This document shows positions 7,601-32,789 of a DNA stretch of 64,000 bases, piece by piece. Within the stretch, counting starts at the first letter, position 1, and each line of letters opens with the position of its first letter. The stretch spans positions 744,001 to 808,000 of the forward strand of contig NW_024881591.1 of the NCBI RefSeq assembly GCF_019059575.1, given 5' to 3'. The stretch comes from Amphibalanus amphitrite (taxonomy: Eukaryota; Arthropoda; Thecostraca; Balanomorpha; Balanidae). The notes beneath the pieces are model-generated. The model was not told the DNA's origin. It saw only the letters and a list, made by a program, of their open reading frames with translations, and did no database searches. Made by a program: the position numbers and the translations under genes.

Positions 7601-10600
7601 AGGGCGTACCAAAATCACTTAAACACTGCGCCGTGCGCGTATCACACTGAGCAGACAGTGAGTTCCCTCGAGCAGACAGTGAGCTACCCTCACACTCACC
7701 TCTGTGCGGGTGGGCCGCAGCAGCTCGTTCTGCTCGGCCAGCATCCTCTGCGCGTTCTCCCTGCGCTGCAGCTGCTCGATGGGCGCGTAGTCGTCCTCGG
7801 AGGCCACCGAGTCATACAGCGGCTCGTCGTCGTCCCCCTCAGCCAGAGCGGCCGCCGCCGCCGCCGCCGCCGCCGGGCCCAGCTGTCTGCGGCGCGCCTC
7901 CTGCAGCACGTCCACGATCAGCGCGCGAAACTCGGGCGCCGTGAATCGCGCCAGCTTCTGTCGGCCCTGGTTGCGGGTGGAGGAGAACTCTGGGTTGACA
8001 GGCAGGAAGGGCACCGATCCGGGCCCGCTGGTGGCGGCCGGGTGCTGCGCCAGCCAGTGAGCGTCCGTCTCGCGCCGGTCCACCTCGTCATAGACGTCTG
8101 CGGCCAGCTCCGCCAGCAGACGCGACTGCAGCTGAGGGAGCACAGGGAGGGGGGTCATACACGGCCAGTAGCGACTGCAGCTGGGGGGGGGGGGGGGGAC
8201 ACAGGGACGGAGGGACTGGGACAGCTATACACGGCCATCAGCCAGGACTACATAAGAACAATATAGCTCCACGCACGATTCTCAACACCAAACCATCTTA
8301 CACAATATATGTACATACTGTGCCCCAGCACGGCAAGGCCCCTCCCACCCCACACCAGTGCCCCTCTCGCCCATCGGTGTACTCACGTTCCGCAGTTTGA
8401 GCCGGGCGTTGACCAGGGCCTCGGTGTCGGGTCCCACCGGCGGCGGCACAACAAAGTGCTGTCCGGCCGCGTGGTCGGGCCGCCGGCCGGTCAGGAAGTA
8501 GGCGAGCCGGTCGGTCAGCTCGTACTGACACTCTTCCAGCCGGCGGCAGAGCTCAGAGTGGCCCGCCTCCCTGCAGTAGAGAGAGGGGGTGTGAGAGAAG
8601 GAGAGAGGGACGGCAGAGCTCCGAGTGGCCCGCCTCCCTGCAGTAGAGAGAGGGGGTGTGAGAGAAGGAGAGAGGGACGGCAGAGCTCCGAGTGGCCCGC
8701 CTCCCTGCAGTAGAGAGAGGGGGTGTGAGAGAAGGAGAGAAGGACGGCAGAGCTCCGAGTGGCCGCCCCTCTGTGGTGGGGAATACACAGGGTCAGAGAA
8801 AGAGAGGTCGGGAGGTTCAGGGGACGGGCACAGGAGACACAAATAAGAATGTCTCGCTTAGCTGAGCTAATCTCTCTGTAAAGTCTAGCATTTTCCAACA
8901 CGTAAGGACTAGTTATGCACATCAGCGAGTACATCATCTCTTGGCCTCAAGTCCAGATGCTCGGGCTATCTGACCCACCTGGCGTGCTGGATGGGTGTGA
9001 GGCCGGCCCGGTCCGGCCGCGACGGGTCCGCCCCGTACACCATTAGCAGCTCGGCCTGCAGCGCCTGGCCGGCGCGCGCTGCCACGTGCAGCGGGCCCGT
9101 GCCGCGCTCCTGGGGAGGACAGGTTCGGGACGTCAGAGCCCAGAGGGCAGCTGGACGGAGACATTGTCACCGGAGTGGCGGGAAAGGGTATCAAGTCGCA
9201 TGCCCAAACATCGGTTTGAGCGTTTTATATCGTGTCACATCAAGACCTTGTTATAGTAGCAGCACAAAACCAAACAGGAATGTAAAAAATTAAAGACGGC
9301 AGCGTAAAAAAAACGTCTTGTCAAAAAAAAATCGCCAACTTCATTGTTTATCACTCCCGATACGTTCACCGTTCATTCAACCACCAAGAGTCCGCACATC
9401 AAGCCTACCACACACTGCCCCCCCCCCCCCCCATAATACCGTACCGGGTGCCAGTAGTTGGGGTTGGCGCCCAGTGACAGCAGGCGCAGGCTGGTCTCTG
9501 TGTTGGGCGTGCGGCAGCTCGAGTGCAGCTGCAGACTGGTGTCGCCCTCAGCCAGCTGTCGATCATCCTTCCCCGGTCGGTACACGAACGCCAGCATCTG
9601 GTGCTTGTCGCGAATAAACTTGGCCTTGTTCGGGCTGTGGAAACAGCGGAGTTAGGTGAGAGGTGAGAGTGGTCATGTGATGAGGAGCGTGTAACAAACA
9701 CAGGACGTGTTTCAGATGAGACATTAACGATGAAGTTAGGAGAGTTTGACATGGTCTTTTGTCGGGGAGCAGCGTAGGGCAGGGTTAAACGATACATAAT
9801 ATATGATAGTCGGGACAGACGCTCCGGTCCGCCGGAAGTGCTCGGACAGTTTACGAATTTTGCACGTCCGCTGTGCTCACTTGGGACTGCCCATCTGGAC
9901 ACGACAGTTGACACCGCGTAAATACAGCAATGCACAGATACCACAGGGACGAATTTCGTAGCGGCGACATGACGTCGTATCAGCTCCTTCCGGTTGCCGA
10001 CATTCGACAACATAAACAATCCTTCATCACGCTCAGCCGAAGAGTGTCGACAGCTGGTCCCTTTGATGCATCAACAGCGATCAGCGTACCCAGAGACTCA
10101 GCCAGAGGCGGGCTTAATTCATCACCCTATTGATCAATCTGTCAGCGCCCTTCCCTCCTGGCTCTTTCTCGCCCCTCCCCTCCTCTCCCAGGCAAGGTCG
10201 CGATTCTCCGTCATCTCCCATCCCCCACGTCAGCCCACACCGCTCGGCCAGGCTAGACAGACAGCCAGCCGGTCGGTCCGCGGCCTACCGTTCCTCGCGA
10301 GACACCGCCCGGCCGGCCAAACGGCCGAACGGCTGAGCACCGATAGCCCGCCGTGTGTGCTCAGCGCGCGGCGAGTGTGTCCGCCGCCGGCCGGCCGGCG
10401 CCGCTGACTCACCCACTCCCACCCGATCGATCCCCGGCCCGGCCGGCTATGGACACCTACTGCACGGGGTCGGTGGGCGCCGGTTTGCGGCGTCCCAGCT
10501 TGCCGTGAGACGGGTCCAGCAGTGAGTGCTCCCAGATGTTGTTGGCGCTCGAGTCGGCTAGGTTCTGCACCATCTGAGGACACACGGGCCGGCGGCACAG

Positions 10601-13600
10601 CGGTCAGGGACGGGTGGGAAGGCCGACGGCGGGCTGCCAGTAACGCCGGACTGACAGAGGACACGGCATCGGCCGGCACCGGGCAGTCGCACTACTGACA
10701 GGTGTGCAATGAATGAATGAATGAATGAATGAATGAATGAATGAATGAATGAATGAGGGGATAACTACCCGAAATACAATCAATAGTGTCAATAAAAATA
10801 CACAATCCTTGGGTAAAAAAAGTGAAACCAGACCCCGACAATAGTCTCCTTACAATAAATCCATCTGGTGACCTTACAGACGTCCTGCCCACTGTCTCAC
10901 CAACCATGACACGACTCCTCCCAGCCTATCGCACCTGACCACCGTCCACGGACCTACCTTCAGCTGCTGGGCGTTCCAGAAGCCGCGCCGGAGCGACTTC
11001 ACCTGCGAGATGTGCCGGCCCAGGCTGCGGTGTACGCTGCAGCAGTCGTCGCAGATCAGGATGCCCCGGTTGATGGAGGCCCACGACGGCTCTGCAACGG
11101 CCAGCGGCGGGGTGACGGTGAGCGGCACGGTGGGAGCGCCGGCGGGGCAGTGAGGGAGGAGCGACACGGGTGGAGGAGGCTCCCGTGCAGGGCGGAGGAG
11201 GCGCGAGTAGGACGATAGTGATCGAGGTCTGGCCTCTGCGAGTGCAGAGACAGAGGGTGGTTGGTGTCATGGCAACATGGTGATGGCATACATAGCCTGT
11301 GCTATTGCATTACAAATGGGAAAAGTGATGCTGAATAATTGCTTCATTGCCTATAAGGAATTAGGAAAATCATTTTAATCAATAGTTGGGCCATAAAACC
11401 AGGAATCAAATTGCAAAAAAAAAAATGAAGGAAGAAAGAGATACCTGAATTGAACTATCAATAAACCACAGATTAAGCATAAAAAGCCACTGGTGATCAG
11501 TCTGGTCATAGTCTGGTCATACTCCTATCGGTTAAGACCTTGAGCTCAATAAAAATGAAAAATTAACTAGTCATTTATTATATTGCTATTTGTTTTTACT
11601 AAATGCATACAAATATCATTTCATACTTTTGTTAAAAAAAAAACATTTAACTGGCTAGTGGCCCACCATACAAGTGATTTGTGATTTCATTTTCATTTAT
11701 CTCGTATTCTTAATATTATCTCTTAAGATATACCCCCGACTGGAAAAAATGCACGCTTTCGTCGAGAACTCGAGCGTAGTTGGGCGTTTGCGCCGAAAAT
11801 TTTCGGCGTACTTCGGCGTAAATCGACGGCTTGCGCCGAAATTTTCGGCGTACTTCGGCGTAAATCGCGAAAAAAACCGTCAGGGGGGTGGCACCAACCC
11901 CCCTCGGCCGGCGAGGATTAAATGTCTTCGGGAGTTAAACATCTTAAATATCACTTATCTTGTCTCGTGTTCGTCTCAGGGTATTTAAGTCATGTTCAGT
12001 GAACTTGATTGTGACTCTCCCACGGCGGGAACAGTTCACCGGTCGAGAGTGAGGTTATGGATTGTCGGATTCCCTAGTTCAGATAACGTATGCTATCGTG
12101 TGCGTATTGACCGTTGTGATTCCTGTATTTCCGGCGTGTGGTTTGCGAGCGGACGCTGGCAATCGGTCCCGCGTGGCCTGGTATCTGCCCGATCCCATCG
12201 GCCGTGCTTGCACCACGCCTGTTGAAGGCCCCGTCAGGCGTCAGTCACCGGTTGGGCACTACTGCTGATCAGAGCCGGGCAACAAAATAAAGGTTACATT
12301 ATGGAACATGCCAGTGAGTTTGTGAGTCAGGAGATTTTGTGATAGCGAACGCTGGTGCTCAGTCCCGCATGGCCTGCTGATGTCTATTGTCTGCCCGATC
12401 CCGTCGACCGTGCGAACAACCGTCTGTAGACAGTAGTCACTGGAAGACAGCCACACACACACGCCAGCCCCCCCCCCTCGACGAAAAGTGCGTGGCTACA
12501 GCCTGCAGCCATCAGTAAGCCTTGAAAATTTTCGGCGCATGAAGCATGGCTTGGTAAAATAATTTCGGCGCATAAACCCTTGCGCCGAAATTTCGGCGCA
12601 TCACCTCCGCCGAGAACTTCAGCGTAGTGGAGGCATTTTTTCCAGTCGGGGATATACCTACTTCATAAATATATGTTAGCCAAGAAAGCTTGGCAGAGCC
12701 CAAGACATTTAGGGCTATGACATTAGGTCTCAGGTAAAAGGGTCTCAGGTAAGCAGTAAGCACTACCTAGACCAGTTCCCTCACCTTTACCCCTAAAAAG
12801 GTTGATAAAATCCTGAGATGATACACAACACTATCCAAGAGGGAATTTACACTAAGGGCTAAAATTTATATGTCCAAAGATTTGTGATAAATAAATTGAT
12901 ACTTGAAACTTGAAAGGCATTTAGTAAGGCTGCCTGATTTAAAATATACCTAGTACCTACTCAATTGCAATACTAAGGGTACCTGAATACCTAATCACAC
13001 TTCAACTTTGAGAAATTATGAAAATATCAGCACTCATTGATCCAAAAAGTTGGCTTATCATTGTATTACAATGATCATTGATGATAAAGAATGCTTATCA
13101 AACTATTGAACATAATAGTTGCTAATGCCCAACAATAATTCATGATTTTGCATGATAAAAAATATTGCACTCTATTCAAATAACCAATAAGGATAAAAAA
13201 TCCATTTCTTTCAGCCTGAAAGACACAATACATGTAGAGTGTGTGGTGAGCATGGTGCATAATCAAGAACTAAACCAATTCAATTTCAATGCCTGGGTAA
13301 TAAAAGTACCCAGCAAGAGTGACAAAGCTCAGCACCAATCACCATGCTATCTTGATCTGAACTTCACTGTTTAACACACTAAGACATGAAAACAAGAAAA
13401 GTTTCTTTCTACAATCTGTTATAATGAAAGAAACGCACAATTTTTGACAAAAGCACCTGTCCTTCTGTATAGCTCACAAGTCATTCACAAACACCAGTTC
13501 AACTATATTGCTATGGCTGCAGGGTAAATTTTCACTCTGACATGAATATTTTATGTAAAAGTCATACTACCTGAAGAAAACTTACCAGGCGCTCCACAAT

Positions 13601-14060: not shown

Positions 14061-14069
14061 CTGCCAAAT
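14061..14069. repeat. Left target site duplication of the foldback element
   Basis: CTGCCAAAT directly left of the terminal ATGTCC, repeated exactly at 25889-25897. Confidence 0.9.
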
Positions 14070-14199
14070 ATGTCCGTGAAGTTGGCGACGTCGCCAGCGA
14101 CTTTTCCAGCGACGAGCACCGATTTTAGCCAAAACCTCGTCCAAGGTCAATTGGACCATGAGGATCACGAAAATCGAACCCATTCACCCCTAAACCTTG

Positions 14200-17100
14200 A
14201 CCTTCAAGGTCAAATTCAAGGTCAAAGGACGGGGAACTGAAAAAGTGCCACTAGATATTGTCCGATCTTCAAAATTTTGGCACCAAAATGTAGCGCGTGC
14301 AAAGTTCTAGCCGCACATCGAAAACCATTTTCATCAAGGTCAAACTTCAAGGTCAAATTCAAGGTCAAAGGACGGGGAACTGAAAAAGTGCCACTAGATA
14401 TTGTCCGATCTTCAAAATTTTGGCACCAAAATGTAGCGCGTGCAAAGTTCTAGCCGCACATCGAAAACCATTTTCATCAAGGTCAAACTTCAAGGTCAAA
14501 TTCAAGGTCAAAGGACGGGGAACTGAAAAAGTGCCACTAAATATTGTCCGATCTTCAAAATTTTGGCACCAAAATGTAGCGCGTGCAAAGTTCTAGCCGC
14601 ACATCGAAAACCATTTTCATCAAGGTCAAACTTCAAGGTCAAATTCAAGGTCAAAGGACGGGGAACTGAAAAAGTGCCACTAAATATTGTCCGATCTTCA
14701 AAATTTTGGCACCAAAATGTAGCGCGTGCAAAGTTCTAGCCGCACATCGAAAACCATTTTCATCAAGGTCAAACTTCAAGGTCAAATTCAAGGTCAAAGG
14801 ACGGGGAACTGAAAAAGTGCCACTAAATATTGTCCGATTTTCAAAATTTTGGCACCAAAATGTAGAGCATGCAAAGTTCTAGCCGCACATCGAAAACCAT
14901 TTTCATCAAGGTCAAACTTCAAGGTCAAATTCAAGGTCAAAGGACGGGGAACTGAAAAAGTGCCACTAGATATTGTCCAATTTTCAAAATTTTGGCACCA
15001 AAATGTAGCGCGTGCAAAGTTCTAGCCGCACATCGAAAACCATTTTCATCAAGGTCAAACTTCAAGGTCAAATTCAAGGTCAAAGGACGGGGAACTGAAA
15101 AAGTGCCACTAAATATTGTTCGATTTTCAAAATTTTGGCACCAAAATGTAGCGCGTGCAAAGTTCTAGCCGCACATCGAAAACCATTTTCATCAAGGTCA
15201 AACTTCAAGGTCAAATTCAAGGTCAAAGACGGGGAACTGAAAAAGTGCCACTAAATATTGTCCGATCTTCAAAATTTTGGCACCAAAATGTAGCGCGTGC
15301 AAAGTTCTAGCCGCACATCGAAAACCATTTTCATCAAGGTCAAACTTCAAGGTCAAATTCAAGGTCAAAGAACGGGGAACTTTAAAAATGCTACGTCACC
15401 AGCGACTTTTCCAGCGACGAGCACCGATTTTAGCCAAAACCTCGTCCAAGGTCAATTGGACCATGAAGATCACGAAAATCGAACCCATTCATCCCTAAAC
15501 CTTGACCTTCAAGGTCAAATTCAAGGTAAAAGGACGGGGAACTGAAAAAGTGCCACTAGATATTGTCCGATTTTCAAAATTTTGGCACCAAAATGTAGCG
15601 CGTGCAAAGTTCTAGCCGCACATCGAAAACCATTTTCATCAAGGTCAAACTTCAAGGTCAAATTCAAGGTCAAAGGACGGGGAACTGAAAAAGTGCCACT
15701 AAATATTGTCCGATTTTCAAAATTTTGGCACCAAAATGTAGCGCGAGCAAAGTTCTAGCCGCACATCGAAAACCATTTTCATCAAGGTCAAACTTCAAGG
15801 TCAAATTCAAGGTCAAAGGACGGGGAACTGAAAAAGTGCCACTAAATATTGTCCGATCTTCAAAATTTTGGCACTAAAATGTAGCGCGTGCAAAGTTCTA
15901 GCCGCACATCGAAAACCATTTTCATCAAGGTCAAACTTCAAGGTCAAATTCAAGGTCAAAAAACGGGGAACTTTAAAAATGCTACGTCACCAGCGACTTT
16001 TCCAGCGACGAGCACCGATTTTAGCCAAAACCTCGTCCAAGGTCAATTGGACCATGAGGATCACGAAAATCGAACCCATTCATCCCTAAACCTTGACCTT
16101 CAAGGTCAAATTCAAGGTCAAAGGACCGGGAACTGAAAAAGTGCCACTAAATATTGTCCGATTTTCAAAATTTTGGCACCAAAATGTAGCGCGAGCAAAG
16201 TTCTAGCCGCACATCGAAAACCATTTTCATCAAGGTCAAACTTCAAGGTCAAATTCAAGGTCAAAGGACGGGGAACTGAAAAAGTGCCACTAAATATTGT
16301 CCGATCTTCAAAATTTTGGCACTAAAATGTAGCGCGTGCAAAGTTCTAGCCGCACATCGAAAACCATTTTCATCAAGGTCAAACTTCAAGGTCAAATTCA
16401 AGGTAAAAAAACGGGGAACTTTAAAAATGCTACGTCACCAGCGACTTTTCCAGCGACGAGCACCGATTTTAGCCAAAACCTCGTCCAATGTCAATTGGAC
16501 CATGAGGATCACGAAAATCGAACCCATTCATCCCTAAACCTTGACCTTCAAGGTCAAATTCAAGGTCAAAGGACGGGGAACTGAAAAAGTGCCACTAGAT
16601 ATTGTCCGATTTTCAAAATTTTGGCACCAAAATGTAGCGCGTGCAAAGTTCTAGCCGCACATCGAAAACCATTTTCATCAAGGTCAAACTTCAAGGTCAA
16701 ATTCAAGGTCAAAGGACGGGGAACTGAAAAAGTGCCACTAAATATTGTCCGATTTTCAAAATTTTGGCACCAAAATGTAGCGCGTGCAAAGTTCTAGCCG
16801 CACATCGAAAACCATTTTCATCAAGGTCAAACTTCAAGGTCAAATTCAAGGTCAAAGGACAGGGAACTCAAAAAGTGCCACTAAATATTGTCCGATCTTC
16901 AAAATTTTAGCACCAAAATGTAGCGCGTGCAAAGTTCTAGCCGCAAATCGAAAACCATTTTCATCCAGGTCAAACTTCAAGGTCAAATTCAAGGTCAAAG
17001 GACGGGGAACTGAAAAAGTGCCACTAAATATTGTCCGATCTTCAAAATTTTGGCACAAAAATGTAGCGCGTGCAAAGTTCTAGCCGCACATCGAAAACTA

Positions 17101-20100
17101 TTTTCATCAAGGTCAAACTTCAAGGTCAAATTCAAGGTCAAAGGACGGGGAACTGAAAAAGTGCCACTAAATATTGTCCGATTTTCAAAATTTTGGCACC
17201 AAAATGTAGCGCGTGCAAAGTTCTAGCAGCACATCGAAAACCATTTTCATCAAGGTCAAACTTCAAGGTCAAATTCAAGGTCAAAGGACGGGGAACTGAA
17301 AAAGTGTCACTAGATATTGTCCAATTTTCAAAAGTTTGGCACCAAAATGTAGCGCGTGCAAAGTTCTAGCCGCACATCGAAAACCATTTTCATCAAGGTC
17401 AAACTTCAAGGTCAAATTCAAGGTCAAAGGACGGGGAACTGAAAAAGTGCCACTAAATATTGTCCGATTTTCAAAATTTTGGCACCAAAATGTAGCGCGT
17501 GCAAAGTTCTAGCCGCACATCGAAAACCATTTTCATCAAGATCAAACTTCAAGGTCAAATTCAAGGTCAAAGGACGGGGAACTGAAAAAGTGCCACTAAA
17601 TATTGTCCGATCTTCAAAATTTTGGCACCAAAATGTAGCGCGTGCAAAGTTCTAGCCGCACATCGAAAACCATTTTCATCAAGGTCAAACTTCAAGGTCA
17701 AATTCAAAGTCAAAGAACGGGGAACTTTAAAAATGCTACGTCACCAGCGACTTTTCCAGCGACGAGCACCGATTTTAGCCAAAACCTCGTCCAAGGTCAA
17801 TTGGACCATGAGGATCACGAAAATCGAACCCATTCATCCCTAAACCTTGACCTTCAAGGTCAAATTCAAGGTCAAAGGACGGGGAACTGAAAAAGTGCCA
17901 CTAGATATTGTCCGATTTTCAAAATTTTGGCACCAAAATGTAGCGCGTGCAAAGTTCTAGCCGCACATCGAAAACCATTTTCATCAAGGTCAAACTTCAA
18001 GGTCAAATTCAACGTCAAAGGACGGGAACTGAAAAAGTGCCACTAAATATTGTCCGATCTTCAAAATTTTGGCACCAAAATGTAGCGCGTGCAAAGTTCT
18101 AGCCGCACATCGAAAACCATTTTCATCAAGGTCAAACTTCAAGGTCAAATTCAAGGTCAAAGGACGGGGAACTGAAAAAGTGCCACTAAATATTGTCCGA
18201 TCTTCAAAATTTTGGCACCAAAATGTAGCGCGTGCAAAGTTCTAGCCGCACATCGAAAACCATTTTCATCAAGGTCAAACTTCAAGGTCAAATTCAAGGT
18301 CAAAGGACGGGGAACTGAAAAAGTGCCACTAAATATTGTCCGATCTTCAAAATTTTGGCACCAAAATGTAGCTCGTGCAAAGTTCTAGCCGCACATCGAA
18401 AACCATTTTCATCAAGGTCAAACTTCAAGGTCAAATTCAAGGTCAAAGGACGGGGAACTGAAAAAGTGCCACTAAATATTGTCCGATTTTCAAAATTTTG
18501 GCACCAAAATGTAGAGCATGCAAAGTTCTAGCCGCACATCGAAAACCATTTTCATCAAGGTCAAACTTCAAGGTCAAATTCAAGGTCAAAGGACGGGGAA
18601 CTGAAAAAGTGCCACTAGATATTGTCCAATTTTCAAAATTTTGGCACCAAAATGTAGCGCGTGCAAAGTTCTAGCCGCACATCGAAAACCATTTTCATCA
18701 AGGTCAAACTTCAAGGTCAAATTCAAGGTCAAAGGACGGGGAACTGAAAAAGTGTCACTAAATATTGTTCGATTTTCAAAATTTTGGCACCAAAATGTAG
18801 CGCGTGCAAAGTTCTAGCCGCACATCGAAAACCATTTTCATCAAGGTCAAACTTCAAGGTCAAATTCAAGGTCAAAGACGGGGAACTGAAAAAGTGCCAC
18901 TAAATATTGTCCGATCTTCAAAATTTTGGCACCAAAATGTAGCGCGTGCAAAGTTCTAGCCGCACATCGAAAACCATTTTCATCAAGGTCAAACTTCAAG
19001 GTCAAATTCAAGGTCAAAGAACGGGGAACTTTAAAAATGCTACGTCACCAGCGACTTTTCCAGCGACGAGCACCGATTTTAGCCAAAACCTCGTCCAAGG
19101 TCAATTGGACCATGAAGATCACGAAAATCGAACCCATTCATCCCTAAACCTTGACCTTCAAGGTCAAATTCAAGGTAAAAGGACGGGGAACTGAAAAAGT
19201 GCCACTAGATATTGTCCGATTTTCAAAATTTTGGCACCAAAATGTAGCGCGTGCAAAGTTCTAGCCGCACATCGAAAACCATTTTCATCAAGGTCAAACT
19301 TCAAGGTCAAATTCAAGGTCAAAGGACGGGGAACTGAAAAAGTGCCACTAAATATTGTCCGATTTTCAAAATTTTGGCACCAAAATGTAGCGCGAGCAAA
19401 GTTCTAGCCGCACATCGAAAACCATTTTCATCAAGGTCAAACTTCAAGGTCAAATTCAAGGTCAAAGGACGGGGAACTGAAAAAGTGCCACTAAATATTG
19501 TCCGATCTTCAAAATTTTGGCACTAAAATGTAGCGCGTGCAAAGTTCTAGCCGCACATCGAAAACCATTTTCATCAAGGTCAAACTTCAAGGTCAAATTC
19601 AAGGTCAAAAAACGGGGAACTTTAAAAATGCTACGTCACCAGCGACTTTTCCAGCGACGAGCACCGATTTTAGCCAAAACCTCGTCCAAGGTCAATTGGA
19701 CCATGAGGATCACGAAAATCGAACCCATTCATCCCTAAACCTTGACCTTCAAGGTCAAATTCAAGGTCAAAGGACCGGGAACTGAAAAAGTGCCACTAAA
19801 TATTGTCCGATTTTCAAAATTTTGGCACCAAAATGTAGCGCGAGCAAAGTTCTAGCCGCACATCGAAAACCATTTTCATCAAGGTCAAACTTCAAGGTCA
19901 AATTCAAGGTCAAAGGACGGGGAACTGAAAAAGTGCCACTAAATATTGTCCGATCTTCAAAATTTTGGCACTAAAATGTAGCGCGTGCAAAGTTCTAGCC
20001 GCACATCGAAAACCATTTTCATCAAGGTCAAACTTCAAGGTCAAATTCAAGGTAAAAAAACGGGGAACTTTAAAAATGCTACGTCACCAGCGACTTTTCC

Positions 20101-23100
20101 AGCGACGAGCACCGATTTTAGCCAAAACCTCGTCCAATGTCAATTGGACCATGAGGATCACGAAAATCGAACCCATTCATCCCTAAACCTTGACCTTCAA
20201 GGTCAAATTCAAGGTCAAAGGACGGGGAACTGAAAAAGTGCCACTAGATATTGTCCGATTTTCAAAATTTTGGCACCAAAATGTAGCGCGTGCAAAGTTC
20301 TAGCCGCACATCGAAAACCATTTTCATCAAGGTCAAACTTCAAGGTCAAATTCAAGGTCAAAGGACGGGGAACTGAAAAAGTGCCACTAAATATTGTCCG
20401 ATTTTCAAAATTTTGGCACCAAAATGTAGCGCGTGCAAAGTTCTAGCCGCACATCGAAAACCATTTTCATCAAGGTCAAACTTCAAGGTCAAATTCAAGG
20501 TCAAAGGACAGGGAACTCAAAAAGTGCCACTAAATATTGTCCGATCTTCAAAATTTTAGCACCAAAATGTAGCGCGTGCAAAGTTCTAGCCGCAAATCGA
20601 AAACCATTTTCATCCAGGTCAAACTTCAAGGTCAAATTCAAGGTCAAAGGACGGGGAACTGAAAAAGTGCCACTAAATATTGTCCGATCTTCAAAATTTT
20701 GGCACAAAAATGTAGCGCGTGCAAAGTTCTAGCCGCACATCGAAAACTATTTTCATCAAGGTCAAACTTCAAGGTCAAATTCAAGGTCAAAGGACGGGGA
20801 ACTGAAAAAGTGCCACTAAATATTGTCCGATTTTCAAAATTTTGGCACCAAAATGTAGCGCGTGCAAAGTTCTAGCAGCACATCGAAAACCATTTTCATC
20901 AAGGTCAAACTTCAAGGTCAAATTCAAGGTCAAAGGACGGGGAACTGAAAAAGTGTCACTAGATATTGTCCAATTTTCAAAAGTTTGGCACCAAAATGTA
21001 GCGCGTGCAAAGTTCTAGCCGCACATCGAAAACCATTTTCATCAAGGTCAAACTTCAAGGTCAAATTCAAGGTCAAAGGACGGGGAACTGAAAAAGTGCC
21101 ACTAAATATTGTCCGATTTTCAAAATTTTGGCACCAAAATGTAGCGCGTGCAAAGTTCTAGCCGCACATCGAAAACCATTTTCATCAAGATCAAACTTCA
21201 AGGTCAAATTCAAGGTCAAAGGACGGGGAACTGAAAAAGTGCCACTAAATATTGTCCGATCTTCAAAATTTTGGCACCAAAATGTAGCGCGTGCAAAGTT
21301 CTAGCCGCACATCGAAAACCATTTTCATCAAGGTCAAACTTCAAGGTCAAATTCAAAGTCAAAGAACGGGGAACTTTAAAAATGCTACGTCACCAGCGAC
21401 TTTTCCAGCGACGAGCACCGATTTTAGCCAAAACCTCGTCCAAGGTCAATTGGACCATGAGGATCACGAAAATCGAACCCATTCATCCCTAAACCTTGAC
21501 CTTCAAGGTCAAATTCAAGGTCAAAGGACGGGGAACTGAAAAAGTGCCACTAGATATTGTCCGATTTTCAAAATTTTGGCACCAAAATGTAGCGCGTGCA
21601 AAGTTCTAGCCGCACATCGAAAACCATTTTCATCAAGGTCAAACTTCAAGGTCAAATTCAACGTCAAAGGACGGGAACTGAAAAAGTGCCACTAAATATT
21701 GTCCGATCTTCAAAATTTTGGCACCAAAATGTAGCGCGTGCAAAGTTCTAGCCGCACATCGAAAACCATTTTCATCAAGGTCAAACTTCAAGGTCAAATT
21801 CAAGGTCAAAGGACGGGGAACTGAAAAAGTGCCACTAAATATTGTCCGATCTTCAAAATTTTGGCACCAAAATGTAGCGCGTGCAAAGTTCTAGCCGCAC
21901 ATCGAAAACCATTTTCATCAAGGTCAAACTTCAAGGTCAAATTCAAGGTCAAAGGACGGGGAACTGAAAAAGTGCCACTAAATATTGTCCGATCTTCAAA
22001 ATTTTGGCACCAAAATGTAGCTCGTGCAAAGTTCTAGCCGCACATCGAAAACCATTTTCATCAAGGTCAAACTTCAAGGTCAAATTCAAGATCAAAGGAC
22101 GGGGAACTGAAAAAGTGCCACTAAATATTGTCCGATCTTCAAAATTTTGGCACCAAAATGTAGCGCGTGCAAAGTTCTAGCCGCACATCGAAAACCATTT
22201 TCATCAAGGTCAAACTTCAAGGTCAAATTCAAGGTCAAAGGACGGGGAACTGAAAAAGTGCCACTAAATATTGTCCGATTTTCAAAATTTTGGCACCAAA
22301 ATGTAGCGCGTGCAAAGTTCTAGCCGCACATCGAAAACCATTTTCATCAAGGTCAAACTTCAAGGTCAAATTCAAGGTCAAAGGACGGGGAACTGAAAAA
22401 GTGCCACTAAATTTTGTTTGATTTTCAAAATTTTGGCACCAAAATGTAGCGCGTGCAAAGTTCTAGCCGCACATCGAAAACCATTTTCATCAAGGTCAAA
22501 CTTCAAGGTAAAATTCAAGGTCAAAGGACGGGGAACTGAAAAAGTGCCACTAGATATTGTCCGATCTTCAAAATTTTGGCACCAAAATGTAGCACGTGCA
22601 AAGTTCTAGCCGCACATCGAAAACCATTTTCATCAAGGTCAAACTTCAAGGTCAAATTCAAGGTCAAAGAACGGGGAACTTTAAAAATGCTACGTCACCA
22701 GCGACTTTTCCAGCGACGAGCACCGATTTTAGCCAAAACCTCGTCCGAGGTCAATTGGACCATGAGGATCACGAAAATCGAACCCATTCATCCCTAAACC
22801 TTGACCTTCAAGGTCAAATTCAAGGTCAAAGGACGGGGAACTGAAAAAGTGCCACTAAATATTGTCCGATTTTCAAATTTTTGGCACCAAAATGTAACGC
22901 GTGCAAAGTTCTAGCCGCACATCGAAAAACATTTTCATCAAGGTCAAACTTCAAGGTCAAATTCAAGGTCAAAGGACGGGGAACTGAAAAAGTGCCACTA
23001 AACATTGTCCGATCTTCAAAATTTTGGCACCAAAATGTAGCGCGTGCAAAGTTCTAGCCGCACATCGAAAACCATTTTCATCAAGGTCAAACTTCAAGGT

Positions 23101-23684
23101 CAAATTCAAGGTCAAAGGACGGGGAACTGAAAAAGTACCACTAAATATTGTCCGATTTTTAAAATTTTGGCACCAAAATGTAGCGCGTGCAAAGTTCTAG
23201 CCGCACATCGAAAACCATTTTCATCAAGGTCAAACTTCAAGGTCAAATTCAAGGTCAAAGGACGGGGAACTGAAAAAGTGCCACTAGATATTGTCCGATC
23301 TTCAAAATTTTGGCACCAAAATGTAGCGCGTGCAAAGTTCTAGCCGCACATCGAAAACCATTTTCATCAAGGTCAAACTTCAAGGTCAAATTCAAGGTCA
23401 AAGAACGGGGAACTTTAAAAATGCTACGTCACCAGCGACTTTTCCAGCGACGAGCACCGATTTTAGCCAAAACCTCGTCCAAGGTCAATTTGGCCATGAG
23501 GATCACGAAAATCGAACCCATTCATCCCTAAACCTTGACCTTCAAGGTCAAATTCAAGGTCAAAGGACGGGGAACTGAAAAAGTGCCACTAAATATTGTC
23601 CGATCTTCAAATTTTTGGCACCAAAATGTAGCGCGTGCAAAGTTCTAGCCGCACATCGAAAGCCATTTTCATCAAGGTCAAACT
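14200..23684 (+). repeat. Left arm: 143-bp tandem array, plus orientation
   Basis: The period was measured at 14279, 14422 and 14565. Each unit contains TGTAGCGCGTGCAAAG and three TCAAGGTCA motifs. Ten internal copies of a 150-bp terminal-like segment (starting near 15379, 15971, 16419, 17725, 19028, 19620, 20068, 21374, 22679 and 23412) break the array into blocks. Confidence 0.97.
14790..22090 (+). repeat. 3649-bp tandem duplication within the left arm
   Basis: Markers recur 3649 bases apart: the GTAGAGCATG variant (14862/18511), terminal-like blocks (15379/19028, 15971/19620, 16419/20068, 17725/21374) and the GCTCG variant (18371/22020). Identity is near complete, with only scattered differences. 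Confidence 0.93.
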
Positions 23685-25740
23685 GAAAATCGGACAATAT
23701 TTAGTGGCACTTTTTAAGTTCCCCGTCCTTTGACCTTGAATTTGACCTTGAAGTTTGACCTTGATGAAAATGGTTTTCGATGTGCGGCTAGAACTTTGCA
23801 CGTGCTACATTTTGGTGCCAAAATTCTGAAAATCGGACAATATTTAGTGGCACTTTTTCAGTTCCCCGTCCTTTGACCTTGAATTTGACCTTGAAGTTTG
23901 ACCTTGATGCAAATGGTTTTCGATGTGCGGCTAGAACTTTGCACGCGCTACATTTTGGTGCAAAAATTTTGAAAATCGGACAATATTTAGTGGCACTTTT
24001 TCAGTTCCCCGTCCTTTGACCTTGAATTTGACCTTGAAGTTTGAACTTGATGAAAATGGTTTTCGATGTGCGGCTAGAACTTTGCACGCGCTACATTTTG
24101 GTGCCAAAATTTTGAAAATCGGACAATATTTAGTGGCACTTTTTCAGTTCCCAGTCCTTTGACCTTGAATTTTACCTTGAACTTTGACCTTGATGAAAAT
24201 AGTTTTCGATGTGCGGCTAGAACTTTGCACGCGCTACATTTTGGTGCCAAAATTTTGAAAATCGGACAATATTTAGTGGCACTTTTTCAGTTCCCAGTCC
24301 TTTGACCTTGAATTTGACCTTGAAGTTTGACCTTGATGAAAATGGTTTTCGATGTGCGGCTAGAACTTTGCACGCGCTACATTTTGGTGCAAAAATTTTG
24401 AAAATCGGACAATATTTAGTGGCACTTTTTCAGTTCCCCGTCCTTTGACCTTGAATTTGACCTTGAAGTTTGACCTTGATGAAAATGGTTTTCGATGTGC
24501 GGCTAGGACTTTGCACGCGCTACATTTTGGTGCCAAAATTTTGAAAATCGGACAATATTTAGTGGCACTTTTTCAGTTCCCCGTCCTTTGACCTTGAATT
24601 TGACCTTGAAGTTTGACCTTGATGAAAATGGTTTTCGATGTGCGGCTAGAACTTTGCACGCGCTACATTTTGGTGCCAAAATTTTGAAAATCGTACAATA
24701 TTTAGTGGCGCTTTTTCAGTTCCCCGTCCTTTGACCTTGAATTTGACCTTGAAGTTTGACCTTGATGAAAATGGTTTTCAATGTGCGGCTAGAACTTTGC
24801 ACGCGCTACATTTTGGTGCCAAAATTTTGAAAATCGGACAATATTTAGTGGCACTTTTTCAGTTCCCCGTCCTTTGACCTTGAATTTGACCTTGAAGTTT
24901 GACCTTGATGAAAATGGTTTTCGATGTGCGGCTAGAACTTTGCACGCGCTACATTTTGGTGCCAAAATTTTGAAAATCGGACAATATTTAGTGGCACTTT
25001 TTAAGTTCCCCGTCCTTTGACCTTGAATTTGACCTTGAAGTTTGACCTTGATGAAAATGGTTTTCGATGTGCGGCTAGAACTTTGCACGCGCTACATTTT
25101 GGTGCCAAAAATTTTGAAAATCGGACAATATTTAGTGGCACTTTTTCAGTTCCCCGTCCTTTGACCTTGAATTTGACCTTGAAGTTTGACCTTGATGAAA
25201 ATGGTTTTCGATGTGCGGCTAGAACTTTGCACGCGCTACATTTTGGTGCAAAAATTTTGAAAATCGGACAATATTTAGTGGCACTTTTTTAGTTCCCCGT
25301 CCTTTGACCTTGAATTTGACCTTGAAGTTTGAACTTGATGAAAATGGTTTTCGATGTGCGGCTAGAACTTTGCACGCGCTACATTTTGGTGCCAAAATTT
25401 TGAAAATCGGACAATATTTAGTGGCGCTTTTTCAGTTCCCCGTCCTTTGACCTTGAATTTGACCTTGAAGTTTGACCTTGATGAAAATGGTTTTCGATGT
25501 GCGGCTAGAACTTTGCACGCGCTACATTTTGGTGCCAAAATTTTGAAAATCGGACAATATTTAGTGGCACTTTTTCAGTTCCCCGTCCTTTGACCTTGAA
25601 TTTGACCTTGAAGTTTGACCTTGATGAAAATGGTTTTCGATGTGCGGCTAGAACTTTGCACGCGCTACATTTTGGTGCCAAAATTTTGAAAATCGGACAA
25701 TATTTAGTGGCACTTTTTCAGTTCCCCGTCCTTTGACCTT
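23685..25740 (-). repeat. Right arm: 143-bp tandem array, minus orientation
   Basis: The same unit inverted, with TGACCTTGA in place of TCAAGGTCA. It lacks the internal terminal-like blocks seen in the left arm and ends in the inverted terminus. Confidence 0.97.
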
Positions 25741-25888
25741 GAATTTGACCTTGAAGGTCAAGGGTTAGGGGTGAATGGGTTCGATTTTCGTGATCCTCAT
25801 GGTCCAATTGACCATGGACGAGGTTTTGGCTAAAATCGGTGCTCGTCGCTGGAAAAGTCGCTGGCGACGTCGCCAACTTCACGGACAT

Positions 25889-25897
25889 CTGCCAAAT
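25889..25897. repeat. Right target site duplication of the foldback element
   Basis: CTGCCAAAT directly after the terminal GGACAT, matching 14061-14069. Confidence 0.9.
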
Positions 25898-26193: not shown

Positions 26194-27338
26194 ATGTTAC
26201 AGGCCGTATGAAAACTCAGTCCGTTTGCAAACGGCCTGGCCCGATTCAGGCCGTTTGCAAACGGCCTGGACAGCCCAGTCAGTATGCAAACGGACTGAAA
26301 AGTCAGGCCGTTTGAATACGGGCTAAAATTCCAGGCTGTATGCAAACCGCCTGAAATTTCAGGCCGTTTGCAAACCGTCTAGGCCGTATGACAACTTTCC
26401 AGACACCAGGCCGTTTGCAAACGGTCTAGGCATTTTGAAAACAATCTGGTCTGCATAAAGTTACAGCTGGACAATGTTGAGTTAGTTGAAGCACGACCGT
26501 TTCATGACATTACATGGCACCATGAAATCCTGAGGTTCATTCGGCATCCGGAAGAATATTGTCACTCGGATATTCTCCGTCGGAGAATTATTGTTGAGTG
26601 CCTATCTTCAGCATGTCTCGTTATCGCGATACCGTTCGTGATCCCCGATGATTCTCGCTAGTTCCGGAAAATTCTCCCTGATTTTCCGGATAACGAATGC
26701 AGGCCTGGTCAGGAAAAGATTAGCAGAACTGAGACCCGGCCCGTATAGCGCCCGGTCGACCCGAACTTCCTCCGGACTTCAAAGTTTCGCCTTCCACCGC
26801 AATGGTCAAGTATTGCCGGCGTACGCCACCGGCCAGCCGCCGGCGGTCGACCAGGCGCGGTGAGGACTCTAATGTGAGCCAGTGGCGCGGGAACTTCTTC
26901 CAGACTGGGGGGGGGGGGGCTGAACCATAATAGAGATCAACCTAGGGTACCCCAAAATCTAGTTTTGTCACCGGTTTAGGCCACTTATTTTTCAGACCTT
27001 GGCCTTTTCAACAAAAAAAAAAAAACGAAAATATTTGCAAAAAAGTCAGGTATTCCGTCTCAACTGAGTGAAGAAACTACCGTTTTGGCAACCTGGAATA
27101 AAGGTTTTAATCTGCCAAATGAGTTGCCGAGCCAGTGAAAGAGGTGGATTTTTCACTTACATGCTTTCTTCCTTTGTGACCCACAACCCCTAATTTGTGG
27201 AGGACAAGCTGCCCCAACGGTTCCTGACTTCATGAGACATGAAAAGTTGTGGGACACCGCCCCCACGGCCCCAGAGCTGTGGGAGCAAGCTTCTCCCACT
27301 GCCCCCTCCCCCGCGGTTCCCGCGCCTGTGTATGAATC

Positions 27339-27600
27339 TGTAAGTAGGTATAATATTATTTAGTGGCCGAGAGCCGTGAAGGATGCACGGCTAAATCGTG
27401 TTCCCGGCTGTGGCGGGAAGCGGTCGCGCGTCGGCGCGCGAGCAGAGCAGAGCAGAGCGCTGGGCAGAGGGTGTGTGTGTGGAGCGCGGCCGAAGGCGCG
27501 GCTGGTTGTGTGTTGTGTGTTCGGTCAAGCTGAGAACACAGGAATACAGAGACATGCAGTATAGACCGGAGGCTGTATCTGAAGACTGAGGTGTCTTACA
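27339..27600 (+). repeat. 5' LTR of gypsy element
   Basis: 262 bp, TG...CA ends, identical base for base to the 3' LTR. It contains a CAGAGCAGAGCAGAGC run and GTGTGTGTGT. Confidence 0.97.
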
Positions 27601-27601
27601 T

Positions 27602-27616
27602 TGGTGGCAGCGGTGG
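27602..27616 (+). promoter_or_regulatory. Primer binding site of gypsy element
   Basis: TGGTGGCAGCGGTGG, one base after the LTR. Its complement ends in CCA as a tRNA 3' end must. I cannot say which tRNA. Confidence 0.75.
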
Positions 27617-27782
27617 TTGTGGTTGCGAACCGGGTTGTGTTGGCCTAACACAGTCTTGGCCTGATAAATTGTTTGACACGGAACCGATCAGCTGCGAGCT
27701 GTTATATAAACATTTGATTTTTTTTCACGCCCCAAGTGATACGCAGTGATTTACGACGACGTCGTGATTATCTCAAGAGGAA

Positions 27783-28742
27783 ATGGCTCACTTCGCGCCA
27801 CCCAGGTATGACGGTCGGGGGTCATTTCGTCGTTTCCGAGAGGATTTTAAGAGTTTTTGTGCCGTGCAGTCGTTCACGGGTGAGGCGACTCTGAACTGTT
27901 TGCCGCTGTGTCTGGATGGAGCGGCCCGAGAGGCGTTCGACACGTTTGAGCGTCCTGCTGACGGCTCAATCGACACTCTGCTAGACCGTCTCGGAGCCGT
28001 GTTCCCGGACGCTAGCGCCTTGGACAGCCACAGCGCGCTGCAGGCGCTCAAATTCGACCCGACGGCTCAGTCACTGGACACCTTCATTGTTCAGCTGCGC
28101 GGCCTGGTCACTGCCGTGTTTGGCGCCCACTCGCCTGATACGCATCTCTTTCACTATTTCCTGGCCGCCTTGCCTCAGCGGTTGGCTCATGCAGTGGTGT
28201 CTTTGGGATCTGTGACCTTTGATGCAGCCGTAAAAAGTGTGCAAAACGTGCTGGCTGCTGATCGTCTGTCTCGGGGACCGGTGGGCCAGGGACAGCGCGT
28301 GTGTGCAGTGGGCGGCGATGGCGCCCGGTCCGAGCCCGCCCTCGACCAGGCGGAGGCTGGGCCGGCCGGATCGGACTCAGAGCGACCGGGGGTGCGTAAA
28401 GTGGGAGACGAGGCTGCAGAACCATCAGTGCTGGAGCAAATTCTGCGCCGCATTGGGCAGCTGGAGTTGCAGCTGGCTGCTACTAACCGGATGGGACAGA
28501 TGAGGCATGACCGGGCCCGGGGACGACAGGAGTGTGACGTGTCAATGCCCATATGTCTGTGTTGTGGGGAGACGGGTCACGGGAAACCAGATTGTCGTTT
28601 CCGTCTAGCCAGGTGCTTTGCCTGTGGGAAGGTGGGCCATGTTCAGCGCACGTGCCGCCTCTCGGGAAACGCCGGAGGGGAGGGCGCTCAGGGCGGCGCG
28701 CGCGCTCCCCGGTCACTCGGCCGCCGGGACCGAGAGTTTTGA
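27783..28742 (+). CDS. gag: Gag polyprotein of gypsy element
   Basis: 319 residues starting at ATG 27783, with an A-rich context (GAGGAAATGG). The N-terminal two thirds resemble a retrotransposon capsid (LDRLGAVFP, ALKFDPTAQSLDTFI). Near the C-terminus are two CX2CX4HX4C zinc knuckles (CLCCGETGHGKPDC and CFACGKVGHVQRTC) that bind RNA in the nucleocapsid. It overlaps pol by at least 190 bases in the -1 frame. It should form the particle in which reverse transcription takes place. The frame is intact. Confidence 0.93.
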   Translation: MAHFAPPRYDGRGSFRRFREDFKSFCAVQSFTGEATLNCLPLCLDGAAREAFDTFERPADGSIDTLLDRLGAVFPDASALDSHSALQALKFDPTAQSLDTFIVQLRGLVTAVFGAHSPDTHLFHYFLAALPQRLAHAVVSLGSVTFDAAVKSVQNVLAADRLSRGPVGQGQRVCAVGGDGARSEPALDQAEAGPAGSDSERPGVRKVGDEAAEPSVLEQILRRIGQLELQLAATNRMGQMRHDRARGRQECDVSMPICLCCGETGHGKPDCRFRLARCFACGKVGHVQRTCRLSGNAGGEGAQGGARAPRSLGRRDREF

Positions 28743-31700
28743 ATAACTGCGCTGCATCGGCGTCGGACATTACGGTCAAGGCAAAGGTTAGTAAGGTGCC
28801 AGCGCAGCTTGTTGTGGATACAGGAAGTGCTATAACAATAGTTCACAGGCGGATTTATGATCAGATTTCAGCGCGTCCCCAGCTACAACGTTGTGACGTC
28901 ACCGCTAAAACTGCAACTCAACAGCCGTTGCGTCTGCTCGGTCGGTGTGCAGTGCATTTTGTTATCGATAATGTGTCATACCCGCTCTCTGTGTTTGTAT
29001 CCGACGAAATCGGTCCCATCGACTGCCTCCTGGGCATGGATTTTTTCGCGCAGTATCCGTTTGTTCTTGACTTATCGACGAAGCAGCTGACACCTGCAAA
29101 CCAGGTGAACCGTCAGCCGGTCGCCACGGTGTTGCCTGAGCGACCGACGACTCGTGTGTGCAGGGTGTCTGTACAGGAAACGTACGCTATACCCCCAAAC
29201 TGTGAGGTTGTGATCCCCGGCCATGTCGATGATGCTGATTTTGAGGGAGAGGCTGTGTTCATTGCCGACGTCGCAGTCAGTGGGTTGACGTTCCTGGACG
29301 GACTGGTTGATGTGAAGCCGGGCGGCAGTGTTCCGGTCGTGGTGCGTAACGTGACGTCATCCTCGGTCTCGGTGTCTAAGGGCAAGGGCCTAGGATCAAT
29401 GGAAGCCGACTTCTCCATTGAAGGGGAGGGGGATGATGCAGACAATGGGGTGTCAAATGGTCCCACGAATGATGCAGACAATGGGGTGTCAAATGGTCCC
29501 AGCTCTGGCGCGGGTTCCTTGGAGGATTTGGTCGATCTGTCTGATGTGTCGCTAACGAGTCAGCAGCGGGAAAAGTTCTTTGCTCTGTTGCGCCGGTACC
29601 CCTCGTTGTTCTCAGACCAGCTTGGTCACTGCTCACTAGTTGAGCACGTAATCGACACGGGCACTGCCAAGCCGGTGCGATCAGCTCCCAGACGAATTCC
29701 CCCACACCTGGAGACAGAAGTAAAGCAGCGCGTGCAGGATATGGTAGATCAGGGGGTGCTGGAGCCGTCTGATGGCACTTGGTCATCACCGGTAGTCCTG
29801 GTGAAGAAAAGAGACGGTTCTGTGCGAATTTGTGGGGATTTTCGAAAACTTAACCGCGTGTGCCAGGTGCCAGCCTTTCCAATCCCAAGGGTTGATGTCC
29901 TACTTGACAGTCTGGGAGGTAACTCTTTGTTTTCGGTGCTCGATCTAAAAAGCGGGTACAACCAGATGAGCATCCGAAAGGAGGATCGATCCAAAACGTC
30001 CATCACGTTGCCGTTTGGGCTTTGGCAATACACAACGTGCCCATATGGCCTCAGTGGTGCCCCGAGTTCGTTCGCCAGACTGTTGAGTCTTGTATTGGGT
30101 GATTTGGCTCCCACTGATGCAGTGAGCTACTTTGATGACATTTTGGTTTTCTCTGGCGATTTTGACACGCATCTTTCACGTCTTGAGAAGGTGTTCCGTC
30201 GTCTGTCGGCTGCGAATTTGACTCTCAACCTCTCAAAGTGCAAATTCTTTCAATCAGAGATCACTTACCTGGGTCACGTGGTGTCGTCTGATGGGGTCAG
30301 TCCCGATCCAGAAAAGGTAGACAAAGTAAAGGATTGGCCGGTGCCTATGAATGAGAAGGCATTGTCACAGTTCTTGGGATTGGCAACGTACTTTAAACGG
30401 TACATCAAAGATTTTGCTGCTATCGCGGCTCCGCTGCATCACCTCACCAGGAAAGACGTAGACTTCCATTGGGATGCGGAGGCTCAGATGGCTTTTGACT
30501 CGCTAAAGGCGGCGCTGTGCACGGCTCCGGTTCTGAAATACCCTGACTTTTCCCCGGGAGCGAGCGAATTCGTACTAGACGTGGATTGTTCAGGGTCAAA
30601 GATGGGCGCGGTTCTGCTGCAGAGGGATGGACAGGGTGAGCGGGCAGTGGCATTTGACAGTAAAAGCCTGTCTAAATCCCAGCGGCAATATTCAGTCACT
30701 AAAAAGGAGCTACTCGCAGCTGTGACGTTTGTGCAGCAGTTCCGACATTACCTTTTGGGTCGTAAGTTCACGCTCCGCACAGACCATGCCGCTCTGCAGT
30801 GGCTTGTGAATTTCAGAAACCCTGACGGGCTTCTGGCGCGGTGGCTGGAGATTTTGGGCGAGTTTCAGTTTGAGATTGTTCATCGGCCAGGTAGGCTACA
30901 TGAGGCTCCGGATGCGCTCAGTCGGAGGCCGGACCCCACGCAGGAGGTGTCTACACAGACAGACACAATGGATTTTCAGTCGCCTCCCGTCGCAGCTCGC
31001 CACGTTCAGTCCATGTGGCCTTCTGATTTCATGTGTTCGGCGCAGAACTCAGACCCCGCCATGGCGGAGGTGAAGAGGCAGCTTGCTGGGAGCACACAGC
31101 GGCCCTCCCAGTCCTCCGTGTCAAAGGGCGCTCTGCCGTACTGGAGGCAGTGGTCACGTCTGCGTTTGATTGATAATGTTCTGTACAGAGTGTTCCGGGC
31201 TGGGCCGAGGGGGCACGACCAGCTGCAGCTGGTAGTCCCACCCCAGCTCGTGCCTGTGGTGCTGGGGTCGCTTCATGATGGTCCGTCGGGTGGGCACTTC
31301 AACGCTTCAAAGCTGGCGAAAGTCGCGCGACTCAGGTTTTGGTGGCCGCTCCTGGAGCGTACGGTGACTGAGTTTTGCGAACAGTGCCGCCGCTGTGCCT
31401 CGCGAAACTCTCCGACTCCCCGCCCATGTGCGAGTATGGGGCAGTTGTCTGCGTCCGAGCCGATGGAGCTGGTGTCCATGGACCTTGTGACCAACCTGCC
31501 GGAAACCGCTCGAGGCTACAAACACCTGCTAGTGATCACTGATCACTTCACACGCTGGGTTGAAGCGTATCCCCTCGCGGATGAAAAGGCTACTACGATT
31601 GCGAATGTTCTTGTAAATGAGTTTATTTCTCGTTTTGGCGTCATGAAACGTGTGCACTCGGACCAAGGTCGGAACTTTGTCGGTGCGGTGATGAAAGCTG

Positions 31701-32740: not shown

Positions 32741-32776
32741 GCGTTTGTTGTGACTGTCGTTGGCATATTGTTCAAT

Positions 32777-32789
32777 AGGAGGGGAGGAG
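32777..32789 (+). promoter_or_regulatory. Polypurine tract of gypsy element
   Basis: AGGAGGGGAGGAG directly before the 3' LTR, the expected plus-strand primer. Confidence 0.9.

What the first reader, a model, noticed from the sequence alone, without database searches (positions are those of the whole stretch)
14061..25897. An 11.8-kb foldback element made of a tandem satellite, with a perfect 9-bp target duplication
Seen: inverted ends (ATGTCCGTGAAGTTGG...), a CTGCCAAAT duplication on both flanks, and a body that is one 143-bp repeat in two opposed arms. Known: Drosophila Foldback elements have long inverted arms of tandem repeats and 9-bp duplications. Inferred: what would be called a satellite array is in fact one transposed unit, of a size and repeat sequence I do not know from any described family.
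Basis: partly seen in the sequence, partly recalled or inferred. Interest (0 to 1): 0.9.

Follow-up and report, generated by a model that had tools for sequence, protein, structure and literature searches.

The report
Jumping satellite array (foldback transposon)
What looks like an ordinary 11.8-kb satellite-DNA array is one mobile element that inserted as a single piece, with many sister copies in the same genome, so it shows directly how satellite DNA can be scattered through chromosomes by transposition.

Summary
The element is 14070-25888 (11,819 bp), between perfect 9-bp duplications CTGCCAAAT. Its ends are 157-bp inverted caps (155/157 alike); the body is two opposed satellite arms (9.6 and 2.2 kb) of 143-bp monomers, joined head to head with no other DNA. 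The left arm also holds ten 162-bp units carrying the end's inner 137 bp without its outermost 20 bp.

The window's genome (807.55 Mb, unnamed) settled the interpretation. 297 termini were counted (control 2). Of 17 copies with both ends read, 15 have perfect and different 9-bp duplications, one 8/9, one none. An empty site with a single CTGCCAAAT exists on another contig. Two pairs of sister copies, 99.8% identical over 7.4-8.4 kb, sit in unrelated flanks and differ by whole monomers: the array moves as a unit.

It is a non-autonomous foldback DNA transposon, probably moved by a Mutator/Rehavkus-type transposase. No copy read encodes a transposase, so the superfamily is inferred. Tetris (Drosophila virilis) and Rehavkus-1_TC (Tribolium) are close precedents, so the kind is known. 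Distinctive here: copies made of nothing but satellite (16 of 17), at least ten centre junctions among 17 loci, and 'disarmed' inner ends. The termini could not be compared with Repbase.

The parts
14061..14069 (+). left copy of the 9-bp target-site duplication CTGCCAAAT
   Evidence: the empty site on contig C130 has the 9-mer once
14070..14226 (+). left terminal cap, 157 bp; the outermost 20 bp (ATGTCCGTGAAGTTGGCGAC) were seen only at element ends; the last ~24 bp are shared with the satellite monomer
14227..23684 (+). left satellite arm: 54 full monomers (50 of 143 bp, four of 142 bp), one 120-bp partial monomer, ten 162-bp end-like units
14799..18447 (+). first copy of a 3,649-bp block tandemly duplicated inside the left arm
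   Evidence: 2 mismatches to the second copy
18448..22096 (+). second copy of the 3,649-bp block
15370..15531 (+). first of ten 162-bp end-like (E) units; the others start at 15961, 16409, 17715, 19019, 19610, 20058, 21364, 22669, 23403; the cap's inner 137 bp behind 25 bp of monomer-like sequence
   Evidence: the 112 units of exactly 162 bp found over 18 loci all carry A instead of G at core position 4
23684..23685 (.). centre junction: monomer phase 120 joined head to head to phase 44/45 of the opposed arm, no spacer
23685..25731 (-). right satellite arm: 14 full monomers (13 of 143 bp, one of 144 bp) and one partial, opposed orientation
25732..25888 (-). right terminal cap, 157 bp, 2 differences from the left
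25889..25897 (+). right copy of the 9-bp target-site duplication CTGCCAAAT

Best explanation
The stretch is one copy of a non-autonomous foldback DNA transposon family whose body consists of satellite DNA. Shown: defined ends, a 9-bp duplication at 15 of 17 copies read, an empty site for this copy, dispersed copies sharing the ends, and sister copies with nearly the same array at unrelated sites. Inferred: recent activity (from the 99.8% identity of sister copies); a DDE transposase supplied in trans by another element, most likely of the Mutator/MULE group (Rehavkus- or Phantom-like), that recognises the 157-bp cap (above all its outermost 20 bp, not seen inside any copy tested), mobilises the whole unit and inserts it at 9-bp staggered cuts. 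Between transpositions the arms gain and lose whole 143-bp monomers and larger blocks by unequal exchange or replication slippage, and the palindromic centre is re-cut and re-joined. The repeats may serve as extra transposase-binding sites, as found for Galileo; that step is untested here. The confidence given is for the non-autonomous foldback transposon; for the MULE group I would say about 0.65.
For: Termini: 297 places at 2 or fewer mismatches against 2 for the reversed-pattern control. TSDs: 15 of 17 copies with both ends read are perfect 9-mers of different sequence, 1 is 8/9, 1 has none. Empty site at G000:C130, single CTGCCAAAT, no insert; the joined flanks align without a break through the site. 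Unit transposition: L011 (C575) and L013 (C331) 99.79% over 8,393 aligned bases, differing by one 143-bp gap each way; L009 (C773) and L028 (C35) 99.84% over 7,431, differing by gaps of 572 (4 x 143) and 1; flanks and TSDs unrelated. 16 of 17 copies are satellite end to end, gaps of up to 16 bases apart; the 17th (C1070) holds nested insertions. Each of 13 copies tested carries the outer 20 bp exactly once per end. MULE genes are present: 111 PF10551 matches, one family with tandem-motif inverted ends and apparent 8-9-bp duplications.
Against: No copy read encodes a transposase. None of the 12 MULE loci fetched has this terminus within about 1.5 kb (no match with fewer than 6 errors in 21), and by my reading of the lists none of the 100 listed termini (of 297) is within 80 kb of a listed MULE match. 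So the superfamily rests on TSD length and architecture alone. One of 17 copies (C627, L022) lacks a duplication. The C240 copy (L023) has one end only: its opposed arm runs into other DNA. The C783 copy has at least 4.6 kb of non-satellite interior of unknown nature. Copies were chosen mostly by similarity to the window's left end. The empty site is only 84-86% identical, so it may be paralogous rather than allelic. Rehavkus inverted repeats are tabulated as 26-400 bp (PMC6446971), far shorter than these arms.
Confidence: 0.88

Rival explanations
1. An ordinary satellite array whose inverted ends and flanking 9-mers are coincidental.
For: Locally it reads as a tandem array; CTGCCAAAT occurs two further times in the window.
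Against: The same ends bound other arrays, 15 of 17 with perfect 9-bp duplications; empty site.
Confidence: 0.01
2. The same foldback unit, but moved by a transposase outside the MULE/Rehavkus group (for example Merlin or an undescribed superfamily).
For: No transposase carrying these termini was found. Foldback architecture arises in more than one superfamily: Galileo belongs to the P superfamily (abstract of PMC3688188; PMC4079207 discussion).
Against: 9-bp duplications in 15 of 17 copies fit MULE (8-11 bp) and Rehavkus (9 bp) as given in PMC6446971; PMC4079207 says most foldbacks seem to belong to Mutator. MULE genes are present in this genome.
Confidence: 0.25
3. Dispersal by reinsertion of extrachromosomal satellite circles or by ectopic recombination instead of transposition.
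For: Whole-monomer differences between sister copies and varied centre junctions show that recombination acts on the arrays. One copy lacks a duplication (C627).
Against: Fixed caps at both ends and 9-bp duplications are not expected from circle reinsertion, which would break arrays at random phases (general knowledge).
Confidence: 0.03
4. Assembly artefact in part: a real transposon, but array length, the 3,649-bp block duplication or the head-to-head centre are mis-assembled.
For: The 3,649-bp block repeats with only 2 differences; long inverted satellites are hard to assemble.
Against: Copies of many lengths share the head-to-head anatomy, and three centre junctions recur on different contigs.
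Confidence: 0.08

Closest known systems
Tetris, Drosophila virilis (PMC4079207; abstract, sections 10 and 11, and the first of two parts of the discussion read)
   Same: Non-autonomous foldback; inverted repeats with an external domain followed by ~220-bp tandem repeats; 8-10-bp duplications; outer domain and monomer share a short stretch; monomer-number difference between alleles; arrays up to 66 copies; no autonomous copy found.
   Different: Tetris has inner and middle domains and inverted repeats up to 1,735 bp; here 16 of 17 copies have no middle domain and one arm is 9.6 kb in the window. The Tetris authors suggest that larger arrays may have disrupted transposition; here large arrays are themselves bounded by intact ends and duplications.
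Rehavkus-1_TC, Tribolium castaneum (passages of PMC10218199 and PMC6446971)
   Same: 9-bp duplications for Rehavkus; inverted termini holding a 164-bp satellite (TCsat23); total length 9.5 kb.
   Different: Rehavkus-1_TC carries short arrays, mostly five and eight monomers; Rehavkus elements have a PHD-finger transposase and tabulated inverted repeats of 26-400 bp. No such gene was found in the copies read here; sequences could not be compared.
Tm1, root-knot nematodes (passages of PMC3169594)
   Same: Foldback-like composite ends with tandem repeats of unequal number, mostly 9-bp duplications; Phantom-type Mutator transposase in some copies.
   Different: 13-15-bp repeat motif, asymmetric outermost 7 bp, distinct middle domains.
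Galileo, Drosophila (abstract and discussion of PMC3688188)
   Same: Long internally repetitive inverted ends resembling Foldback; the repeats hold extra transposase-binding sites.
   Different: P superfamily, with a THAP-domain transposase; shorter duplications (recalled).
Drosophila Foldback (FB)
   Different: Host and repeats differ; kinship not tested.

Membership tests
Foldback-type element (architecture class) | Long inverted arms made of tandem repeats | tested here: met
Foldback-type element (architecture class) | Target-site duplication at insertions | tested here: met
   15 of 17 perfect 9-bp, 1 of 17 8/9, 1 of 17 none
Foldback-type element (architecture class) | Precise insertion as a unit (empty site) | tested here: met
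   one empty site, for the window's copy; not tested for other copies
Foldback-type element (architecture class) | Middle domain between the arms (present in many, not all, foldbacks; recalled) | tested here: not met
   no non-satellite middle in 16 of 17 copies; in C1070 the interior is nested insertions. Not treated as defining
Mutator-like (MULE) superfamily | 8-11-bp target-site duplications | tested here: met
   9 bp; range from PMC6446971
Mutator-like (MULE) superfamily | MULE DDE transposase in an element with the same termini | tested here: inconclusive
   MULE genes exist in the genome but none was seen with these termini (lists); only 100 of 297 termini were listed
Rehavkus | 9-bp duplication | tested here: met
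   PMC6446971 Table 1 passage
Rehavkus | PHD-finger transposase | tested here: inconclusive
   absent from the copies read; the rest of the genome was not searched for it
Rehavkus | Terminal sequence similar to Repbase Rehavkus entries | not testable with these tools
   Repbase not held
Drosophila FB family proper | Sequence similarity to FB termini or NOF protein | not testable with these tools
   no reference sequence at hand

The most novel reading that the evidence does not exclude
A 'satellite transposon': a mobile element whose entire body is a binding array. Each 143-bp monomer carries TCAAGGTCA three times (212 sites in this copy, none elsewhere in the window), and transposition itself, not neutral unequal exchange alone, selects for long arrays because every monomer is a docking site for the transposase or for a host protein (TCAAGGTCA is, from memory, the extended half-site of FTZ-F1/ERR-type nuclear receptors). 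Each insertion would then plant some two hundred such sites near a gene; here the neighbour is a GIT-like gene.
Probability: 0.2. Interest if true: 0.8.

Novelty: new variant of a known kind. Interest (0 to 1): 0.6.

Why it matters
How satellite repeats come to be scattered along chromosomes is a standing question. Here all-satellite arrays of 3.1-12.7 kb, read in full, carry their own ends and (all but one of them) 9-bp duplications, and one has an empty site, so dispersal by transposition is shown, not inferred from proximity. Sister copies with nearly identical arrays at different sites give a natural record of how a satellite gains and loses monomers. The inner end-like units, which lack the outermost 20 bp, hint at what the transposase must not see inside the element, and the many centre junctions record repeated revision of a long natural palindrome. 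PMC3688188 (2013) states that binding to the tandem repeats of Foldback and Phantom elements remained untested; this family would offer a test once its transposase is known.

Tried and rejected
Coincidental satellite, circle reinsertion and artefact were considered and are listed as rivals. The non-satellite interior of the 19.4-kb C1070 copy looked like a possible transposase but is a 6,744-bp LTR retrotransposon (1,106-bp identical direct ends) plus a 1,835-bp second insertion. The C783 interior (4.6 kb read) has no open frame above 136 aa; of seven frames scanned none matched Pfam above cut-off. Exact patterns of the repeat or terminus gave nothing in viral contigs or genome contigs; those hold viral and prokaryote DNA, so this says little. 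One protein search aimed at the host gave 5 unnamed relatives; a barnacle host was a guess from genome size and stays unverified. A first splitting of the arms missed many units and was replaced. Terminus conservation first looked extreme (28 of 31 identical), but those were mostly chosen by similarity; six ends not in the list have 8 differences in 942 bases, so I make no claim of special conservation. TCAAGGTCA positions are slightly more conserved than the rest of the monomer (0.994 against 0.984; 2.8% of circular shifts as high): weak. The paper search for TCAAGGTCA with 'satellite DNA' gave four listings, by title and abstract unrelated.
Full report
Observation. The window holds CTGCCAAAT at 14061-14069 and 25889-25897. 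Between them lie 11,819 bp that begin and end with the same 157-bp sequence in opposite orientation (2 differences; the first 50 positions identical). Tandem Repeats Finder gives a 143-bp period from 14202 to 23414 and, inverted, from 23684 to 25756. Split by unit, the left arm has 54 full monomers, one partial and ten 162-bp units; the right arm has 14 full monomers and one partial. The arms meet at 23684 without spacer DNA. The element has no BLAST relative elsewhere in the window; the window has no Rfam match at gathering score and no tRNA gene.

The 162-bp units. Each consists of 25 bp resembling the start of a monomer fused to the inner 137 bp of the terminal cap. Across 18 loci (the window and 17 others, two-piece copies counted once) I counted 112 such units of exactly 162 bp (a few of other lengths were left out); all 112 have A in place of G at core position 4, and they differ from the cap's 137 bp by 1-6 bases. 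The outermost 20 bp (up to 4 mismatches) occurred once at each end and nowhere inside in all 13 copies tested with both ends. So the inner units look like disarmed ends with a common origin. That this is selected, because inner working ends would break the element, is my inference.

The genome. The window is contig C94 of an unnamed 807.55-Mb genome. The first search gave 80 matches, of which 40 are near-complete termini; only 40 of 848 first-look candidates were scored. A pattern census for the outer 21 bases with up to 2 mismatches gave 152 + 145 places against 1 + 1 for the reversed pattern. Only 100 places, all exact, were listed. Pairing neighbours by hand gave 40 convergent pairs of 3,110-26,929 bp, median 8,425.5 (lengths); I left out 18 unpaired ends and one 57-kb pair on C121. 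Partners with a mismatch are not in the listing, so unpaired does not mean single. At about 150 copies this would be roughly 1.3 Mb of the assembly (my extrapolation).

Target duplications. I read both flanks of 17 copies: 13, 3, 1. Fifteen have perfect 9-bp duplications, all different (for example TTGCAAATT, CCAAACTAT, ATACCGCTG, GGATAGCCC, GCGGGGATC); I see no shared motif. C1070 has 8 of 9. C627 has none; its two ends may come from different insertions. Five further fetched loci (L023-L027) gave only one end and are not counted: four are cut by the stretch; in L023 (C240) the opposed arm stops at other DNA without an end. Most of the 17 were chosen for similarity to the window's left end; C664 was chosen as the shortest listed pair.

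Empty site. The 300 bp left of the insertion have one other match, on C130 at 87%. The joined flanks align without a break through that locus (84.0% over 1,627 columns; 85.6% over 1,361), with one CTGCCAAAT and no TCAAGGTCA in the 3.3 kb held. Whether C130 is the other haplotype or a paralogue is open; identity is low for an allele. The right-flank search did not complete but the right flank is covered by this alignment.

Movement as a unit. L011 and L013 are 99.79% identical; the order of units is the same except that one monomer is gained and one lost in one arm. L009 and L028 are 99.84% identical and differ by four monomers and one base. Their flanks and duplications are unrelated. So arrays of 7-8 kb moved whole, and array length changes in monomer steps. 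Monomer identity is about 97.5% whether units come from the same arm, the other arm or another copy, so the satellite is one shared pool.

Centre. In 17 loci I found at least ten different centre junctions, by BLAST-based phases. Three recur: one in L009, L014, L028 and, turned round, L027; one in L018/19 and, turned round, L020/21; one in L011, L012, L013 and, turned round with 9 extra bases, L024. A single ancestral inversion left untouched would give one junction. Repeated deletion or re-joining at the palindrome centre, or repeated independent formation, is needed; I cannot separate these.

Transposase. No copy read encodes one. 16 of 17 are satellite throughout; C1070 carries nested insertions; C783, of which I read parts only, has an unidentified interior without long frames. 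The 26.9-kb pair on C13 was satellite in its last 9.9 kb and in three 1.2-kb samples. The genome has 111 PF10551 matches (150 of 204 candidates scored). Twelve loci were fetched; none has the terminus nearby. Three of them (L036-L038) are copies of one 2.2-kb MULE with inverted ends of short tandem motifs and apparent 8-9-bp duplications; L036 and L037 share their flanks, so these are two independent sites. This shows that the machinery type is present, not that it moves this element.

Literature. Tetris and Rehavkus-1_TC make satellite-built inverted arms with 8-10-bp duplications a known kind. In 322 arthropod MULE types the longest inverted repeat reported is 1,193 bp (passages of PMC13359780). 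Galileo repeats bind transposase, while for Foldback and Phantom this is stated to be untested. Ten paper searches were made; among their listings I saw no title or abstract reporting a foldback made of satellite alone with an empty site, but only open-access papers are held and I read only the parts named.

Verdict. The kind is known; the all-satellite form, disarmed inner ends and shifting centre make it a variant. Confidence is high for transposition and moderate for the MULE assignment.

Noticed in passing
27339-33051: Ty3-type LTR retrotransposon 1.4 kb to the right: 262-bp LTRs 100% identical, AATC on both flanks, long open gag- and pol-like frames: a recent insertion.
   Followed up: partly
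7619-11266 (- strand): Exons of a GIT-like gene (Spa2 homology and ArfGAP domains); the foldback lies about 2.8 kb beyond the ArfGAP exon on its 5' side, upstream or in an intron.
   Followed up: partly
14204-25700: 212 copies of TCAAGGTCA (three per monomer) in the element and none elsewhere in the window.
   Followed up: partly
L036, L037, L038 (about 538-2724): A 2.2-kb MULE with open frames of 333-471 aa, inverted ends made of GTTTGGTCTAGT-like tandem motifs, apparent 8-9-bp duplications.
   Followed up: partly
G000:C783:74400-79000 (L054, L064, L055): Non-satellite interior of a 15.5-kb terminus pair of this family, at least 4.6 kb, no long ORF; origin unknown.
   Followed up: partly
G000:C13:1435166-1462094: Terminus pair 26.9 kb apart, satellite wherever sampled: possibly a giant copy.
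   Followed up: partly
L036 and L037 (C169, C1243): The same MULE insertion with the same flanks on two contigs (98.9% over 2,970 bp): the assembly seems to hold duplicated or uncollapsed regions, which bears on whether C130 is an allele.
   Followed up: no
46696-47139 (+ strand): Open frame 42-84% identical to five unnamed proteins; resembles the NALCN-associated FAM155 family by recall only.
   Followed up: no
39337-39965 and 26880-27063: A ~629-bp self-inverted repeat (78%) with a partial relative at 26880-27063: probably another short inverted-repeat element.
   Followed up: no
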